Positions 2 through 13,009 of a DNA stretch of 36,812 bases are shown here, one piece after another. The stretch comes from an uncultured Pseudomonadota bacterium (GTDB taxonomy: Bacteria > Pseudomonadota > Alphaproteobacteria > Rs-D84 > CASDRH01): assembly GCA_949283075.1 (NCBI GenBank), contig CASDRH010000005.1, positions 1 through 36,812 of the forward strand. Reading direction: 5' to 3'. The position numbers and the translations under genes were made by a program. A model generated the notes under the pieces. It had not been told where the DNA came from. It saw nothing but the letters and a program-made list of their open reading frames with translations, and searched no databases. Each line of letters starts with the position of its first letter. Positions within the stretch are counted from its first letter, which is position 1.

Positions 2-564
2 GTTGCTACTAGACATTTAATTCCAATATTGTATAATATCAATAGACTTATTAGGTAGTTGTTTTAAGTTGCTACTAGACATTTAATTCCAATATTGTAT
101 AATTTTTATAGTATAAAGAGTATAAAAGGATAAGTTGCTACTAGACATTTAATTCCAATATTGTATAATTATACATACAATAAAAAAAAAGAACATTAAG
201 TTGCTACTAGACATTTAATTCCAATATTGTATAATTATTGTCTACTTCATTTAGCAAGTATTCATGTTGCTACTAGACATTTAATTCCAATATTGTATAA
301 TAGATTGTAGTAATGGAGAGTATAAAGATTAGTTGCTACTAGACATTTAATTCCAATATTGTATAATTTTTTTTCTAATTGTTTTTATATTGTTTTCGTT
401 GCTACTAGACATTTAATTCCAATATTGTATAATTCTTAATGTTTTTATAACATTATTGAATGTGTTGCTACTAGACATTTAATTCCAATATTGTATAATT
501 AAAAATATATGTCTATTATATAAAAGGTGTTGCTACTAGACATTTAATTCCAATATTGTATAAT
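2..564 (+). CRISPR. CRISPR array, type II-C, nine repeats, open at left edge
   Basis: Nine identical 36-bp repeats begin at 2, 68, 134, 200, 266, 332, 398, 464 and 529. Each starts GTTGCTACTAG and ends TTGTATAAT. Eight spacers separate them, seven of 30 bp and the last of 29 bp (500-528). Position 1 is the base before a repeat, so the array probably continues beyond the window and its leader is not visible. The orientation is plus: the anti-repeat of the tracrRNA at 5419-5441 is the reverse complement of repeat positions 5-27, so the crRNA must read rightward. Spacers are about 19% GC by hand count. No repeat is degenerate, not even the last one next to the terminator at 575. The array is convergent with the cas genes. 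Confidence 0.98.
537..564 (+). promoter_or_regulatory. Sigma70-like promoter inside every CRISPR repeat (last copy given)
   Basis: Within the repeat, TAGACA (repeat positions 9-14, 5 of 6 to TTGACA) is followed by 16 bp and then a perfect TATAAT (positions 31-36). The same arrangement is present in all nine repeats, for example 10-15 with 32-37 in the first. Transcription would start about 7 nt into each spacer and run through the next repeat, giving guides of roughly 23 nt. In Neisseria type II-C loci crRNAs are known to start from repeat-embedded promoters, which supports the reading. Activity here is inferred. Confidence 0.75.
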
Positions 565-574
565 ATATATTAAT

Positions 575-600
575 AAAGCCCAGTATTTCTGGGCTTTTAT
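575..600 (+). terminator. Terminator at the end of the CRISPR array, possibly bidirectional
   Basis: A 9-bp perfect stem AAAGCCCAG / CTGGGCTTT (575-583 and 589-597) has a 5-nt loop and ends in a short T run. It sits 10 bp after the last repeat and would end crRNA transcripts. On the minus strand the same hairpin is followed by TTTATTAATA and lies beyond cas2, so it may also stop the cas operon. Confidence 0.7.
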
Positions 601-675: not shown

Positions 676-1026
676 CTAAAATAATTGAAATTGTTCAGGT
701 TTTTCATCCAATTTCTGTTCAGAATGATTTTTATATAAATGTATTATTTCTCCAAATTGATAATCAGTAAAAAACAATATACAAACATCCCCTGTTTTAG
801 GATTATTATCTTTTAATAATCTAACATATTTCTGACTATTTTCTTTTGTTCCAGTAAATCTGACATAAACAGAATACTGAGCCATCCCAAAACCATAATC
901 TAATAAAAAGCTTCTAAATTTAGCAGCTTGTTTCCTTTCAAAACTAGTTTCAGTTGGAAGATCAAACATCACCATCATCCACATATATTTAAGACCTCGT
1001 GTTTTAAAATATTGATTTTCAATCAT
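676..1026 (-). CDS. cas2: CRISPR-associated endoribonuclease Cas2
   Basis: This 116-aa protein is a Cas2 subunit of the spacer-acquisition complex that pairs with Cas1. The N-terminal beta strand ends in MFDLPTET, with the conserved Asp at residue 22, followed by a ferredoxin-like fold with the YGFGMAQYSVY segment typical of type II Cas2. The ATG overlaps the cas1 TGA by four bases (ATGA, 1023-1026), so translation is probably coupled. It is the last gene of the leftward cas9-cas1-cas2 operon. About 110 bp separate its stop from the CRISPR array. No csn2 or cas4 follows, as expected for subtype II-C. Confidence 0.95.
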   Translation of the reverse strand: MIENQYFKTRGLKYMWMMVMFDLPTETSFERKQAAKFRSFLLDYGFGMAQYSVYVRFTGTKENSQKYVRLLKDNNPKTGDVCILFFTDYQFGEIIHLYKNHSEQKLDEKPEQFQLF

Positions 1027-1922
1027 AATTTAATCATATATTGGTTATAATTAAGTTTTACTTTCTTGTCTTTTACAGAGCTAACAAAATTCCAAACATC
1101 TTGTTGGATTATGTTATAAAGTTCAGAAAAGCCTTCTCCATTATATACTTCTAAATGAATAACCTCTGCTAATTTTTTCTTATATTCAGGAGACAAGATT
1201 TTTGTTTCATCATCTATACCATTAAAAATATTATAAACAATAGCATCAGTTATAGGTCTATAAGGCTCTATCAAGTCATCAACTAAACAAAAAGGATTTA
1301 ATTTATTATGATGTTTAATACCAAAAGAAGGATTTAATCCTGATGCAACAACTATTCTAGCAATTGTAGCTCTTAATATACTATAACCATAATTTAAAAA
1401 TGAATTAATACCATTTAAATCATGATTTCTTATAAAGCCATTTCCAAATAACGAAGGAAAATAAAGCCTAGCAGCATAAGCTTCAATATTACCAGAATCA
1501 CCAGATAAAACTTTACTATGTAGCTTATCTATTGGATTTGATTTTTGTAACAAATTTAATAATTTTGACTGATTTTTTATTTTTTCTTTTACTATTTCCG
1601 CCCACAAATTCTTTTGCAAAGGTTTAGAAATCGATATTTGTAATTCTTGAATATTAGTCTGTCTTTGTTGTCCAATTAAAGAAAGTAATATTCCGCTTGG
1701 ATGAAAATTATCAGATAAAATTATTAAAGGAATATTATTTTCACATAAATTCTGTAATAAATTATTTGTATAAATAACTCCTCTTGCAGTTACTATCAAA
1801 GAACATATGGAATCAAAAGGGACATCTTTAATAATGTCCCCCTTCTCTTTTATTCTTAAAAAACCTTTGTAACAGGATAACTCCTTATTATCCGTAGATA
1901 TTTCAAGTATGTTGTTTATCAT
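1023..1922 (-). CDS. cas1: CRISPR-associated integrase Cas1 (type II)
   Basis: Cas1 is the integrase that inserts new spacers at the leader end of the array. The protein is 299 aa from the chosen ATG at 1922, which has GGAG about 8 nt upstream; a longer reading from a TTG at 1946 lacks such support. Probable metal ligands are visible: Glu147 in GNIEAYAARLYF, His204/205 in GIKHHNKLNPF and Glu219 in DDLIEPYRP. These match the type II Cas1 pattern. The start lies inside the last 20 bp of cas9 and the stop overlaps cas2, so the three genes form one tight operon. All expected residues are intact. Confidence 0.96.
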   Translation of the reverse strand: MINNILEISTDNKELSCYKGFLRIKEKGDIIKDVPFDSICSLIVTARGVIYTNNLLQNLCENNIPLIILSDNFHPSGILLSLIGQQRQTNIQELQISISKPLQKNLWAEIVKEKIKNQSKLLNLLQKSNPIDKLHSKVLSGDSGNIEAYAARLYFPSLFGNGFIRNHDLNGINSFLNYGYSILRATIARIVVASGLNPSFGIKHHNKLNPFCLVDDLIEPYRPITDAIVYNIFNGIDDETKILSPEYKKKLAEVIHLEVYNGEGFSELYNIIQQDVWNFVSSVKDKKVKLNYNQYMIKL

Positions 1923-4900
1923 TTTCAGAACTCCACTTATTATCAAACCCAGGATCTATAAGTTCTCCAATAGGAGAAATATAAACCTTTCGCATTTTCT
2001 TTTCTTTTAACTCATTAAGATAAGGTTCAAAAGTTCTAGATTTATCATCTAAATCTTTAGTATCTTTATTATGTCTTAATTTAAATTGTTTATTTTGCCC
2101 AATAGATTTCAAATTATATATTTGTTTTTGCCCATTAAATTCCAACATAATTTGATCATTAGTCTTTAAAGTCATAACTTTTCTGGTAGTTGGATATTTC
2201 AAACGCCATAAAGACTTACCATTATTTATAGTTGCCATATAATTTGACATAACCTCTATTTGCCAAGATCCAGCATCTTTAACATAAACTTTATCATTAG
2301 GATTTATCTGATATATTTCAGATTTATATATATTACCGGCAACATACCACTTATAAGCTTTTTTTGCAGCCTCTCTTAATATAAATAAAAGATTATCCTC
2401 CTTTAATTTCTGTTCTTTCTTTTTACTCTTATCAAAGATATGTTTTGATTTACCATCTTCAATATACCAATTTATATAAGCCTGTCTGTAATTTTCTTTA
2501 TCCTCTTTTGTCCTAAAAACAGGAACATAAGTTGATATATCAACTAATTTTTTCACTTTTATTTTTTGCTTATTATTTTTTTCACAATGATAAATAAATT
2601 CACTTAAAGCACCATCATTTTCTCCAATAGTCCTTAATACTTTGTCTGCATATGTATCCACAACATTTTTCAAATCTTTTACTGTTTTTAAACTATCAAT
2701 ACTTTCTTTTACAACAAACCAAGCTTTTAATCCATTATCAAATGAAAATAAACTATAAGCGGTATCTTCGTGTAATCCCCCAACAGTAGTATGAGAAGTG
2801 TTATCAACTTTCTTATTCCTTGTTCTGTAAGATATAGCCATATTTTCTAACCTATTTTTGAAATCAACTCTATTAAAGTTGTTAAAAGGTTCAGTATTAC
2901 CATTAAACAAAGCTTTTCTAAATTCCTTAATCTCTCCATATTGAGACGCAGCTAATATTTCAATTTTATCAGCATTTTTTGCAATTAATTGCAAATCTCC
3001 TACTTTTAAACAAGCAATAACAAAAGCATCAACCGCATGATGTAAATGAGAAACTCTATACATTTCTTCATTATCTTTATTTTTAAATACATTAAGTCCC
3101 CATTGCTCTCTAAATAAAGCAGTCATCTGACCAGGTAATCCAATAACTGAATTTTTATTATTACAAATATATTTTAAATAATTAACAGCTAACTTAGACA
3201 TATATTTTGTATCATTAAGTTGTCTAGCAATACAATTATTTTCATCATTAAATTTATCCATGGCATTTTTTTCAAATCTCCATTTAACATTATCGGGTAA
3301 AACTTGAGCTCTTTCATAAATCTCTTCCCAAATAAACCTAGGATCATTACTAAAAGCAAAAGCTTCATAAGGAGTTTTATTACCCTTAAAATAATTTCCT
3401 TCTGAAAAAGCAACAATTTTATTAGCCATACTATCATCTAAAGTTCTAGAAAAAGGTAAAATATGTTCAACTTGAACATTAGGAGAATACAAATCATTCA
3501 CAGATATTTGTCTGCCAGTATATATACAAATTTTTTTATTATCTTTTACAGGTAATCTTTCCCATAATTTATATTTTTGAATATCATCTTTTGATATATT
3601 AACTTCACTACTAAACAAAACTGTATTAACAAGCTCTTGTTTAATTCTATCATTTTCTTTTTTACTTTTTGTTTGTTCTTTATCTATATCTGATAATCCT
3701 TTTGTACCAACCTTTAATTCTCTTGCTAATTCTATAGAAACAGCATCAGGTTTACCATATTTGCTGATAAGAGAATTAACAATCAATCTAAGTTGATTCA
3801 AAGCTATATGAACAGAAACATTTGTTATTTTACCATACCTTTTTTCAAGATTTTGTTCATTTTGATCACTATTACCTCCAATACAAGATTTTCTAATCAA
3901 ATCTAATGAAGCATAATATGGTAGATAGTCTAGACCTTCAATATTACTATCAACATCAGAATGGTGATATCCAGCCTTTTTACAAGCATCATGATATAAA
4001 AAACCATCTTCAAGATATGGAATAATATTTTCAATAGCTTTTTGAGATAAACTAGCAGTTCCTTCATCTATTTGAGCTTGTAATATGTTATTAGCTTTTT
4101 CTTCCGATAAAGAATAAAAATTAATTAGTTCAATTAATAAATCATCATCTTCAATTTTATCATCTGATAACTTATCTAATATTAAATTTTGCTCATTTAT
4201 ACTAAACTCAAACCACTTATTCCCAAAACAATTATCATTAGATAAAACAAAAGCAGTGGTATCAGCATATATAGATTTTCTTTTTTCACTTTCTAAATTA
4301 AATTTAACATTTTTTTTCAAACCAAGTTGTTTTTTTAATTCAGCAAATGTAATTTCACCTTTTTTATTAACACCAATAAAAGAAGTTAATAAAATATCTT
4401 TAATTTTATTTTTTTGTTCTAATGTTAAAGAAATAATATCAGAATTAGAGTTTATCTCTAATTGATTTATAGTCTGCAATACTCTAAATTTCTGAAACAA
4501 AGGATTTCTTTTATAAGCTCTACGTTCACCATTTTCAAACATACAGAATCCAACTTCTTGTTCCTTTAAAGGCCTTTGATAAAAAATAGCATTATAAAAC
4601 TTATGCTTTAAATCATCAGTTAAATTAGGATAAAAAGACTGTTGTTTATCCCAAATCATATTAAATTCATCAATATACATCTGCCTTGTAGGGTACAAAA
4701 CATTTATATCTTTATTATCTTTTTCATTAAATCTAATACTTTTTGCAAAAACACCTTTTTCTTTTTCTTCAAGATATCTTTTTGATAACCACTCACCAAT
4801 AGTTTTACAACCAGAATCATATATTTCTGTTTCTAATTTTTTAGAAGCAACAGCCAACTTTCCGCCATCAGTTTTTTTTAATTCTTTTCTATTACTTTTA

Positions 4901-5271
4901 AAACCTCTTCTTAAAGACAAATGAAATAATACACGGCCAAATTCTGGCAGAGTCAATTTATCATACAAAGCTTTTGCTCTTAAGACATAAGGATTTTGTC
5001 TTTCTTCAATATCAGAAAAAGACATAGAATTGTTATTTATCAAATCAAGAACTTTCTTTTTTCTAATCAAAATTCTATCATGTCTATTCCTAGAACCTCT
5101 AGCAATTCTTCTTCCAACACATAAAGGCTCATGAGATTTAACATCACGACCATCAGGAAATATTCTAACCCCCATATCAAGTAAATCAGAAGGATTATTA
5201 TTATCATCTAATTTAACGACAGCCCATCCAAGAGAAGTAGAACCTAAATCAATACCTATTTTATATTTCAT
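1903..5271 (-). CDS. cas9: Type II-C Cas9 RNA-guided endonuclease, compact (1122 aa)
   Basis: Cas9 cuts both DNA strands under guidance of crRNA and tracrRNA. RuvC-I is at the N-terminus (KIGIDLGS, Asp8) and is followed by an arginine-rich bridge helix near residues 52-72. RuvC-II has VSIELARE (Glu514). The HNH domain has VEHILPFSRTLDDS (His603) with Asn617 and Asn626. RuvC-III is HHAVDAF (His745, Asp748). All catalytic residues appear intact, so an active nuclease is expected. At 1122 aa it falls in the short class with other II-C enzymes (about 1000-1130 aa) rather than the ~1370 aa of Streptococcus pyogenes. The ATG at 5271 has AAGGAA six bases upstream and a good promoter at 5304-5332. 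The PAM cannot be read from the sequence. Confidence 0.98.
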   Translation of the reverse strand: MKYKIGIDLGSTSLGWAVVKLDDNNNPSDLLDMGVRIFPDGRDVKSHEPLCVGRRIARGSRNRHDRILIRKKKVLDLINNNSMSFSDIEERQNPYVLRAKALYDKLTLPEFGRVLFHLSLRRGFKSNRKELKKTDGGKLAVASKKLETEIYDSGCKTIGEWLSKRYLEEKEKGVFAKSIRFNEKDNKDINVLYPTRQMYIDEFNMIWDKQQSFYPNLTDDLKHKFYNAIFYQRPLKEQEVGFCMFENGERRAYKRNPLFQKFRVLQTINQLEINSNSDIISLTLEQKNKIKDILLTSFIGVNKKGEITFAELKKQLGLKKNVKFNLESEKRKSIYADTTAFVLSNDNCFGNKWFEFSINEQNLILDKLSDDKIEDDDLLIELINFYSLSEEKANNILQAQIDEGTASLSQKAIENIIPYLEDGFLYHDACKKAGYHHSDVDSNIEGLDYLPYYASLDLIRKSCIGGNSDQNEQNLEKRYGKITNVSVHIALNQLRLIVNSLISKYGKPDAVSIELARELKVGTKGLSDIDKEQTKSKKENDRIKQELVNTVLFSSEVNISKDDIQKYKLWERLPVKDNKKICIYTGRQISVNDLYSPNVQVEHILPFSRTLDDSMANKIVAFSEGNYFKGNKTPYEAFAFSNDPRFIWEEIYERAQVLPDNVKWRFEKNAMDKFNDENNCIARQLNDTKYMSKLAVNYLKYICNNKNSVIGLPGQMTALFREQWGLNVFKNKDNEEMYRVSHLHHAVDAFVIACLKVGDLQLIAKNADKIEILAASQYGEIKEFRKALFNGNTEPFNNFNRVDFKNRLENMAISYRTRNKKVDNTSHTTVGGLHEDTAYSLFSFDNGLKAWFVVKESIDSLKTVKDLKNVVDTYADKVLRTIGENDGALSEFIYHCEKNNKQKIKVKKLVDISTYVPVFRTKEDKENYRQAYINWYIEDGKSKHIFDKSKKKEQKLKEDNLLFILREAAKKAYKWYVAGNIYKSEIYQINPNDKVYVKDAGSWQIEVMSNYMATINNGKSLWRLKYPTTRKVMTLKTNDQIMLEFNGQKQIYNLKSIGQNKQFKLRHNKDTKDLDDKSRTFEPYLNELKEKKMRKVYISPIGELIDPGFDNKWSSENDKQHT

Positions 5272-5358: not shown

Positions 5359-5392
5359 TTGACTTTAAAAAAAATAAAAGTAAACTTATAAA
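5359..5392 (+). promoter_or_regulatory. Candidate tracrRNA promoter
   Basis: Two overlapping plus-strand solutions exist: TTGACT (5359-5364)-N16-TAAACT (5381-5386), and TTTAAA (5364-5369)-N17-TATAAA (5387-5392). Both predict a start at about 5393-5400, just before the anti-repeat at 5419. I cannot choose between them by eye. Confidence 0.45.
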
Positions 5393-5398
5393 AGTTGA

Positions 5399-5495
5399 AA
5401 TCAATAACTTCTAAATTTTATTGGAATTAAATGTCTAGTAGTTAATAAGAGATTTCACAATTTAAAGTGGCAACTTCGCGTTGCCATTTATTTTT
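5399..5495 (+). ncRNA. tracrRNA for the type II-C Cas9
   Basis: A 23-nt block (5419-5441, TATTGGAATT to GTCTAGTAG) is the exact reverse complement of CRISPR repeat positions 5-27 and would form the repeat:anti-repeat duplex cut by RNase III. The tail continues through an AU-rich stretch to a 9-bp hairpin, AGTGGCAAC (5466-5474) and GTTGCCATT (5480-5488), followed by a T-rich run (5487-5495) that should terminate transcription. I see only this one stable hairpin after the anti-repeat, so the tail is short, about 55 nt. The 5' end is estimated from the candidate promoter. It is divergent from cas9 and on the same strand as the array. Confidence 0.9.
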
Positions 5496-5577: not shown

Positions 5578-5653
<76 letters not shown>

Positions 5654-10636: not shown

Positions 10637-13009
10637 TTAATATTCCAAACCAATTTGTTGTCTATTTGTTAAACTACCACCGCTTTTTGTACTAAAAGTA
10701 CCTAAGTTTTTAAAAGCAAATGTAAATAAGAATATTGTATCACCCTTATAATCTCTATCATACGAATATTTCTTTTCCATTTCAATAGCAAAAGCAAAAC
10801 AATCATTTTGATATCTAGCACCTAGTCCATAACTAACAGCTCTTTTATCATAAATATTATAACGAGCATTAGCATAAGTTGCCCAATATCTATTCAAATT
10901 AACTCTAATACCAGAAAATATTTCTTCTCTATCATATATTTTACCAGAACCATCATCAACATCACGCAAAAAGACATAATCTGTAAATAACCTTACATTA
11001 TAAATCCAAGTTGAAATAGAAAATTCATTTTTATTAAATTGAGATAAATCATTACTTATTCTAAACCTATAATGTAAATCCAAATATTTATTTCTTATAT
11101 AAGAAAACCTACCAACTATATCAGAAATACCATTTTTATAATTTAAACCACTATAATCAGGATAATCATTATTATCAGAATAACTTAAAGATTGTCCTAA
11201 CATAAAAGAAATATTATCATCAGCACGAACTGTATACCAATTGAAACCATAATTAATTCTATTACCAACATCAACCATATCATAACCAGAGTTTCTATTT
11301 AAAGAAAACAAGTTTTTATCATCTAATTCAATATCAATAGAATCTCTATTTTCAATCTTCAAATTTCTCTCAATATCAGGAGATAAAACAACCTGAACAA
11401 TAGGTTCTAAAACTTCTGTTCCTAAAAAACCATTTCTATACATTGGATATTTCGCTAAAACACTAGCTTCTGCATATCCTCTAAAAATATCATCCTTTAA
11501 AAAAGAACCATTATTAGGATAATTCGGATCTAAAAAAACAAGAGAATTATCAACATTATAATAATCACCTCTTGCATATAAAGCAGTTTCTAACACAACA
11601 CCATTATTTAAAAAATGATTATTCTGCCTTAAAATAGAAGCAGAAAGACGAGTATTACGATAATTCCTATCTTGCCACATATTATTTTTATGAAGACTTA
11701 CAGTATTAAAATTCATTTCCCAGAAACCACCAAATGAATCTCCATCTGTTCTTCCAACATAATTAATAGAAGGATAAACATCAACAATATCAAAAGAAGT
11801 AGTATCGCTACGCAAATCTTGATATAAAATACCAGAAACTTCTAATCTGCTTCTTTCCCAGAAGCCTTCTAATAAAAGATTTGAAGTCAACCAAGGTTCA
11901 TTAGATAAATCATACCTTCTTAAATAAGTATCATCAGACACTCTTCTAATATTCAAAGCACCACGAAAAATTTCATTAAATATAAAATAACTTTGATAAT
12001 TAACATACCAAGACCTATCCATATCTTTTTCGGTATTAAAAATATCATTAACACTTCCATCAAAAGAAACTCTTAAATTTTTAAAATTTTGCTTATATTC
12101 GCCAATTAAAACACTACCATTTTTAGTATTCAACATAGGCGTTAATTTTAAATAAGAATAATCATTCAAATAAATATAAAAAGGTATACTTAAAGACGTT
12201 CCCGTATAAACAGAAGTACTAATTGTTGGAAATAAAAAACCAGTTCTATGAGTAATTGAAGGGTCAGGATGCAACATATAAGGAATATAAAAAACAGGGA
12301 CTCCCCATAAATAAACAAAAGCATTAGTATAACTCATAGTCTTATCATCTAAATCATGACTAATAGTTGAAGCTTTAATTTCCCAAGTTGGATGCTCTTT
12401 CTTTAAAGCGACATCATCATTTAAAGATAATTGTTTCACATCATCAGACTCGGAGCAGTCTTTATATTCATTTTCCCCTTCAAAAACCAACCTAACAGGA
12501 CAAGCAGTATAAGAAGCCCCTTTTAACGAATGAACATTATCAATTCTTCTTTCCAAACTATCAGCTTCAGCAACAGAACCATCAACTAATTCAACTTTTG
12601 TATGTCCAGCTTGAATTTGTTTAAAATCAGAAGACATAACAACATTTTCAGTTTTCAATATGTTATCATCTCTTTTAAGAACGACATCTCCATTAATCAT
12701 TAACAACTGTTCTTTAGTATTATAAATTAAATTATCAGAATCAAAAGCAGTCCTTCCATCAGGAGAAACAGAATGAACCCCTCCAACAGTAGTTATAATA
12801 CCAGTCTTCATATCATACAAAACAGAATTAGTTTCAAAAATAGTATTATCAAAATCATTATCAATATTTAATGAAAAGTTTTTAAAACCTTCATTTGAAA
12901 ATGTAATACGTTGAAACTGAGCATAAGAATCTTTTACAGATAAAATACAAAAAATTGCAAAAGCTTGCAAAATAAGAAAATGTAATAAAGCATTTATTTT
13001 ATATTTCAT
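10637..13009 (-). CDS. lptD: LPS-assembly outer membrane protein LptD
   Basis: LptD with LptE places lipopolysaccharide in the outer leaflet of the outer membrane. The 790-aa protein has a signal peptide (cut near DSYA, residue 30). An OstA/LptA-like jellyroll domain covers about 55-190 (TGIITTVGGVHSVSPDGRT, LMINGDVVLKRDDN). The large beta-barrel domain covers about 210-790, beginning at WEIKASTISHD and VFYIPYMLHPDPSITHRTGFLFP. Cys170 and Cys185 in the N-terminal half and Cys737 near the end could form the inter-domain disulphide needed for function in E. coli, although the pattern differs. An AAGGAAG about 10 nt before the ATG lies inside the end of lptF. Its presence implies an LPS-bearing outer membrane. 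Confidence 0.97.
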   Translation of the reverse strand: MKYKINALLHFLILQAFAIFCILSVKDSYAQFQRITFSNEGFKNFSLNIDNDFDNTIFETNSVLYDMKTGIITTVGGVHSVSPDGRTAFDSDNLIYNTKEQLLMINGDVVLKRDDNILKTENVVMSSDFKQIQAGHTKVELVDGSVAEADSLERRIDNVHSLKGASYTACPVRLVFEGENEYKDCSESDDVKQLSLNDDVALKKEHPTWEIKASTISHDLDDKTMSYTNAFVYLWGVPVFYIPYMLHPDPSITHRTGFLFPTISTSVYTGTSLSIPFYIYLNDYSYLKLTPMLNTKNGSVLIGEYKQNFKNLRVSFDGSVNDIFNTEKDMDRSWYVNYQSYFIFNEIFRGALNIRRVSDDTYLRRYDLSNEPWLTSNLLLEGFWERSRLEVSGILYQDLRSDTTSFDIVDVYPSINYVGRTDGDSFGGFWEMNFNTVSLHKNNMWQDRNYRNTRLSASILRQNNHFLNNGVVLETALYARGDYYNVDNSLVFLDPNYPNNGSFLKDDIFRGYAEASVLAKYPMYRNGFLGTEVLEPIVQVVLSPDIERNLKIENRDSIDIELDDKNLFSLNRNSGYDMVDVGNRINYGFNWYTVRADDNISFMLGQSLSYSDNNDYPDYSGLNYKNGISDIVGRFSYIRNKYLDLHYRFRISNDLSQFNKNEFSISTWIYNVRLFTDYVFLRDVDDGSGKIYDREEIFSGIRVNLNRYWATYANARYNIYDKRAVSYGLGARYQNDCFAFAIEMEKKYSYDRDYKGDTIFLFTFAFKNLGTFSTKSGGSLTNRQQIGLEY

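What the first reader, a model, noticed from the sequence alone, without database searches (positions are those of the whole stretch)
2..564. Every CRISPR repeat carries a near-consensus promoter with both -35 and -10
TAGACA-N16-TATAAT is present in all nine repeats, reading into the next spacer. In Neisseria-type II-C arrays the known repeat promoter relies on an extended -10 element; here the repeat seems to contain a full two-box promoter. This would make each spacer an independent transcription unit, with no need of a leader promoter or 5' crRNA processing. Expression would not fall off with distance from the leader.
Basis: partly seen in the sequence, partly recalled or inferred. Interest (0 to 1): 0.72.

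Follow-up and report, generated by a model that had tools for sequence, protein, structure and literature searches.

The report
CRISPR repeats that double as promoters
Each copy of this Cas9-type CRISPR repeat looks like a small promoter that switches on the memory unit next to it; promoters inside repeats are already known for this CRISPR subtype, and the only new point is a second promoter box that is shared by many relatives but not yet shown to matter.

Summary
Nine identical 36-nt repeats each carry TAGACA-N16-TATAAT, 11 of 12 consensus, reading into the next spacer. The locus is a type II-C system: cas9, cas1, cas2, tracrRNA and an array convergent with cas. Promoters inside every II-C repeat are known from C. 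jejuni and Neisseria, so the main idea is not new. Comparison with 117 II-C repeats shows that the 3'-terminal -10 is near-universal. The nearest relatives add an extended -10 (TGATATAAT), which this repeat lacks. A -35-like box is shared by a subset: 11 of 34 repeat families match TTGACA at 5/6 or better, always at 16 or 17 nt, and host-order tracrRNA promoters use the same TTGACA-N16-TATAAT layout. Against a promoter role, the box lies inside the stretch that pairs with tracrRNA. It is also lost without trace of selection in eroded first repeats that keep the -10. Only its first T is conserved beyond what pairing explains. Verdict: the repeat is very probably a promoter (about 0.85), and the -35 box more likely than not contributes (about 0.55 to 0.6). 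Whether leader transcription and 5' processing are dispensable here is untested. This is a plausible two-box variant of a known kind.

The parts
2..564 (+). type II-C CRISPR array, 9 identical 36-nt repeats and 8 spacers (seven of 30 nt, last of 29 nt); truncated by the contig start
10..15 (+). -35-like TAGACA, repeat nt 9-14 of the first repeat (also at 76, 142, 208, 274, 340, 406, 472, 537)
   Evidence: inside the tracrRNA-paired stretch
32..37 (+). -10 box TATAAT, repeat nt 31-36 (also at 98, 164, 230, 296, 362, 428, 494, 559)
   Evidence: near-universal in II-C repeats
529..564 (+). last repeat, expected acquisition end (cas2 side); intact
   Evidence: last repeats are intact in nearly all related arrays; acquisition at the last repeat per PMC12080349
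575..597 (+). terminator-like hairpin starting 10 nt after the last repeat, about where a transcript from the last repeat would begin
   Evidence: fold -14 kcal/mol, z -4.85; conserved position in relatives
676..1026 (-). cas2
   Evidence: TIGR01573, 7e-18
1023..1946 (-). cas1, type II; the true start may be further inside
   Evidence: TIGR03639, 4e-72
1903..5271 (-). cas9, 1122 aa
   Evidence: TIGR01865, 2e-173
5359..5386 (+). predicted tracrRNA promoter TTGACT-N16-TAAACT
   Evidence: relatives have TTGACA-N16-TATAAT here
5412..5446 (+). tracrRNA anti-repeat; pairs with repeat nt 1-27, including TAGACA
5465..5489 (+). tracrRNA terminator

Best explanation
This is a type II-C CRISPR-Cas9 locus of a reduced-genome alphaproteobacterium in which every repeat is a sigma-70 promoter for the spacer that follows it. 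RNA polymerase binds TATAAT at repeat nt 31-36, helped by TAGACA at nt 9-14, and starts about 5-8 nt into the spacer. That leaves a guide of roughly 22-25 nt without 5' cutting. The transcript runs into the next repeat, whose 5' part pairs with tracrRNA and is cut to give the 3' end. The stretch that holds TAGACA thus serves twice: as a -35-like box in DNA and as part of the crRNA:tracrRNA duplex. A hairpin just after the last repeat stops transcription before the convergent cas genes. Shown by sequence: the boxes, the spacing, the system type, the anti-repeat and the hairpin. Inferred: promoter activity, start site, 3' processing and a role for the -35 box. The core claim (each repeat is a promoter) I put at 0.85; that both boxes contribute in this organism at 0.5 overall.
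For: Boxes present in all nine repeats. Host TATAAT sites upstream of genes are enriched for a -35 of 5/6 or better at 16-18 nt, 9/88 against 5/700, and for TGn, 20/88 against 40/700. Over 34 repeat families the best -35 match at 16-18 nt averages 3.80 of 6 against 2.38 (sd 0.14) for shuffled repeats. Matches of 5/6 or better occur at spacing 16 (9 families) and 17 (2) and at no other spacing from 13 to 21. The forward strand gives 8.24 of 12 against 5.67 on the reverse strand. T at nt 9 is conserved more than its anti-repeat partner by 0.87 bits (bootstrap 0.52-1.24); the -10 positions 29, 32 and 36 are too, and 31 in point estimate. tracrRNA promoters of the same order are TTGACA-N16-TATAAT or nearly so: 12 loci at 10/12 or better, 9 of them with spacing 16. 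Eroded first repeats keep at least the last 11 nt, never 6-10 and never only the 5' part. C. jejuni precedent: transcripts start at spacer nt 5 from per-repeat promoters (PMC3656092).
Against: No RNA data for this organism. TAGACA is fully paired with the anti-repeat. The conservation of nt 12-14 is explained by pairing, that of nt 11 almost so (0.16 bits), and nt 10, the second T of a -35, varies T/G/A. In eroded first repeats of families with a -35-like box, that region is lost about as often as its 3' neighbours, and what remains is no better than letter shuffles (3.76 against 3.71). Thirteen of 34 eroded first repeats lack part or all of the -35 hexamer but keep the -10. No -35/extended -10 trade-off. 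No purine preference at the expected start site over 1825 spacers. The families are related by deep descent, so the family count overstates independence.
Confidence: 0.5

Rival explanations
1. Each repeat is a promoter, but only through its -10 region; TAGACA is a by-product of the crRNA:tracrRNA duplex and adds nothing or little.
For: TAGACA lies in the anti-repeat duplex. Eroded first repeats keep the -10 and lose the -35 region in 13 of 34 cases with no sign of selection. Neisseria-type and other II-C repeats lack a -35. C. jejuni promoters in general lack a clear -35 (PMC3656092).
Against: This repeat lacks the extended -10 (TGn) that such promoters lean on. All 8 repeats that end in TATAAT without TGn have a -35 of 5/6 or better, although they fall into about three families. 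T at nt 9 is conserved even where it is mispaired. Spacing is confined to 16-17 nt. The oldest spacer may tolerate weak expression, so first repeats are an imperfect test.
Confidence: 0.35
2. The array is transcribed from a leader or upstream promoter as one precursor and the repeat boxes are inactive in this organism.
For: The 5' end of the array is off the contig and cannot be examined. R. anatipestifer was reported to lack repeat promoters (PMC5006608).
Against: Near-universal TA---T 3' ends that are retained in eroded first repeats. Last repeats, at the acquisition end, are intact and lie downstream of transcription (PMC12080349).
Confidence: 0.1
3. The conserved 3' end and nt 9 are read by another DNA-binding protein, for example Cas1-Cas2 during spacer insertion, not by RNA polymerase.
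For: nt 1 and nt 7 also show conservation beyond pairing, as expected for insertion signals.
Against: The conserved letters are those of a sigma-70 -10 at the right place and match the tracrRNA promoters of the same order. In eroded first repeats, which are not the insertion site, the 3' end is kept.
Confidence: 0.05

Closest known systems
Campylobacter jejuni type II-C per-repeat promoters (Dugar et al. 2013, PMC3656092)
   Same: minimal cas9-cas1-cas2 system, 36-nt repeats, a -10 box as the last nt of every repeat, transcription into the spacer, tracrRNA-dependent 3' processing
   Different: C. jejuni relies on an extended -10 (GGTAAAAT) and its promoters lack a clear -35; here TAGACA stands at 16 nt and TGn is absent
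Neisseria meningitidis type II-C repeats (Zhang et al. 2013, not held; described in PMC5006608 and PMC7038990)
   Same: promoter embedded in each repeat, 5' processing dispensable
   Different: repeat with TGCTACAAT and no -35-like box (TCCCTT at nt 9-14, L179)
Flavobacterium columnare II-C repeats (Hoikkala et al. 2021, PMC8092290)
   Same: a TTG motif at -33 in the repeat was proposed as a repeat-encoded promoter element
   Different: Bacteroidota-type promoter, no -10 TATAAT reported; no systematic comparison
Clostridium cellulolyticum II-C repeats (PMC7038990)
   Same: last nine nt resemble an extended -10; array transcribed opposite to cas
   Different: no -35 described

Membership tests
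Type II-C CRISPR-Cas | cas9, type II cas1, cas2 and no csn2 or cas4 next to them | tested here: met
   names cas9, cas1 and cas2; the other long ORFs next to them do not look like csn2 or cas4 by their translations, though these neighbours were not searched against families
Type II-C CRISPR-Cas | 36-nt repeats, 30-nt spacers and a tracrRNA with an anti-repeat | tested here: met
Type II-C CRISPR-Cas | array transcribed opposite to the cas genes, new spacers added at the downstream end | tested here: inconclusive
   anti-repeat strand and terminator agree with convergent transcription; in relatives the 5' repeat is eroded and the 3' repeat intact; acquisition was not observed
[quoted passage not shown]
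   TATAAT in all nine repeats
II-C repeat-embedded promoter | extended -10 (TGn), as in the characterised examples | tested here: not met
   TTG-TATAAT, no TG at the canonical place; nearest relatives have TGATATAAT. This excludes the extended -10 form, not a promoter in the repeat
II-C repeat-embedded promoter | primary transcripts starting inside each spacer | not testable with these tools
   no RNA data
Two-box sigma-70 promoter | -35 and -10 hexamers 16-18 nt apart, used by the host | tested here: met
Two-box sigma-70 promoter | -35 box under selection as promoter DNA | tested here: inconclusive
   for; against:

The most novel reading that the evidence does not exclude
A widespread branch of II-C systems (many Alphaproteobacteria, Treponema, Opitutales) has repeats that are complete two-box sigma-70 promoters, TTGAC-N16/17-TAnnnT. 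The -35 box is overlaid on the tracrRNA-pairing region, so one 36-nt sequence is at once promoter, processing signal and guide scaffold.
Probability: 0.45. Interest if true: 0.55.

Novelty: new variant of a known kind. Interest (0 to 1): 0.4.

Why it matters
If both boxes work, repeat strength could be tuned by a -35 that must also pair with tracrRNA, a readable case of one short sequence under two constraints. It would predict per-spacer transcription in a large, unstudied set of II-C systems and explain why arrays can grow at the end farthest from any upstream promoter. In practice it would supply compact arrays that need no external promoter.

Tried and rejected
Chance: rejected as a full explanation (about 1% for this box combination in the host, and 11 of 34 families share it), though a single repeat alone would be weak evidence. 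-35/extended -10 trade-off: tested at three cluster cut-offs, none found. Selection for the -35 in eroded first repeats: tested, none found. Purine bias at the start site: none. Protospacers to fix the strand by PAM: exact search of viral contigs with two complete spacers and a 26-nt core of a third found nothing. Cas9 relatives in viral contigs: none. Finding the missing 5' end of the array in other contigs: no copies. An anchored scan of eroded repeats was replaced by a fixed-offset one, because the anchor forced the -10 to look conserved. Zhang 2013 and Chylinski 2013 are not in the library, so an earlier remark on a -35 cannot be excluded.

Full report
What is there. The window is a complete contig of a 0.93-Mb genome. 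It is probably a reduced alphaproteobacterium, judging by the names of the records with the nearest Cas9s. At its left edge lie nine identical 36-nt repeats with 30-nt spacers (the last 29 nt) on the + strand. They face the cas2, cas1 and cas9 genes on the - strand. Upstream of cas9, on the + strand, lies an anti-repeat followed by a terminator, that is, a tracrRNA. This is the standard layout of a type II-C system. The contig begins 1 nt before a repeat, so the upstream end of the array is missing, and no other contig carries the repeat.

The observation. TAGACA-N16-TATAAT is in every repeat and scores 11 of 12. These are the nine best promoter-like sites of the first 6 kb, although the total number of promoter-like sites is what shuffled sequence gives. 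In 370 kb of this genome, TATAAT sites upstream of genes have a -35 of 5/6 or better at 16-18 nt in 9 of 88 cases, against 5 of 700 inside genes. The extended TGn is enriched too, 20 of 88 against 40 of 700. The host therefore uses both kinds of promoter, and the repeat has the two-box form without TGn.

What is known. Promoters in each II-C repeat were shown in C. jejuni, with transcripts starting at spacer nt 5 from an extended -10 (PMC3656092). [quoted passage not shown] For F. columnare a TTG at -33 was proposed (PMC8092290). I found no paper describing a -35 plus -10 pair in proteobacterial repeats, but key papers are not held.

Relatives. I collected II-C arrays by Cas9 and Cas1 searches in the order, class, phylum and named genomes and obtained 117 usable distinct repeats. 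The last nine nt are the most conserved part apart from the first three. The nearest repeats keep TAGACA but end in TGATATAAT, a perfect extended -10. A TTGAC or TAGAC box of 5/6 or better is present in 11 of 34 families, 9 at spacing 16 and 2 at spacing 17. No other spacing from 13 to 21 has any. The mean match is 3.80 against 2.38 (sd 0.14) in shuffles. Neisseria-type repeats lack it. The families share deep ancestry, so the count is not a count of independent events.

Confounding by tracrRNA. The anti-repeat pairs with nt 1 to about 27, including TAGACA. Over 100 repeats in 32 families, the repeat is more conserved than its partner at nt 1, 7, 9, 29, 32 and 36, with bootstrap intervals that exclude zero; nt 8 and 11 lie at the border. 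nt 29, 32 and 36 belong to the -10 region and nt 9 is the first T of the -35. In many alphaproteobacterial systems nt 8-10 are mispaired with U in the tracrRNA and T9 is still kept. The rest of the -35 box (nt 11-14) is as conserved as, or barely more conserved than, its pairing partner, and nt 10 varies. DNA-level constraint is therefore clear for the -10, suggestive for T9, and absent or untestable for the rest.

A natural experiment. The first repeat of an array is needed as the promoter of the oldest spacer but not for any guide's scaffold. With a fixed offset of 66 nt upstream of the first near-perfect repeat, eroded copies keep a 3' stretch of 11 nt or more, never 6-10, and never only the 5' part. 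This supports selection for the -10. Thirteen of 34 eroded copies have lost part or all of nt 9-14. The -35-like quality that remains equals that of shuffled letters (3.76 against 3.71), and there is no dip of mutation at the box. This speaks against a strong need for the -35, though the oldest spacer may tolerate weak expression.

tracrRNA promoters. In the same order the tracrRNA gene, whose promoter has no pairing constraint, is preceded by TTGACA-N16-TATAAT or close variants in 12 loci, 9 of them with spacing 16 (window: TTGACT-N16-TAAACT). The spacing seen in the repeat is thus normal for this lineage.

Ends of arrays. A strong hairpin follows the last repeat at about 9 nt. A terminator-like hairpin is found within 70 nt in 51 of 120 arrays, against 3 of 102 upstream flanks. 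The median fold energy is -19.7 against -7.0 for shuffles. In the window it folds at -14 kcal/mol, z -4.85. It starts about where a transcript from the last repeat would begin, so it would stop such transcripts before the convergent cas genes. It may also be an acquisition signal.

Judgement. Per-repeat promoter: about 0.85. Contribution of the -35 box in this organism: 0.55-0.6 given that, because TGn is missing here. Independence from a leader and from 5' processing: plausible by precedent, untested here. 3' processing by tracrRNA and a host ribonuclease is still expected.

Noticed in passing
window 575-597; 3' flanks of II-C arrays generally: A hairpin, often terminator-like, starts about 9 nt after the last repeat (51 of 120 arrays against 3 of 102 upstream flanks). 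A short AA..TTGA-like motif at about +12 to +22 is conserved even in arrays without a clear hairpin, possibly the acquisition leader.
   Followed up: partly
II-C repeat nt 8-10 against anti-repeat (L128, L132, L227, L235, L204): Many alphaproteobacterial II-C duplexes have a conserved UUU/UUU-type internal loop at repeat nt 8-10, while Treponema keeps the same repeat letters fully paired.
   Followed up: partly
L110 (G007:C4), 85345-85380 and 86980-87015, - strand: Two solitary copies of the same repeat core, with different nt 27-30 but both ending in TATAAT, in a genome of the same order without a detected Cas9.
   Followed up: partly
G037: L040 and L043: One genome carries two II-C loci whose repeats differ by one nt (CTGATATAAT and GTGATATAAT).
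   Followed up: no
L050, reverse strand near 11758 of the oriented locus: A perfect solitary repeat on the opposite strand, away from the array.
   Followed up: no
window 1: The contig breaks 1 nt before a repeat and no other contig has the repeat; the array is an assembly break and its true length is unknown.
   Followed up: partly
window 5578-5653, - strand: tRNA-Asn just beyond the tracrRNA gene.
   Followed up: no
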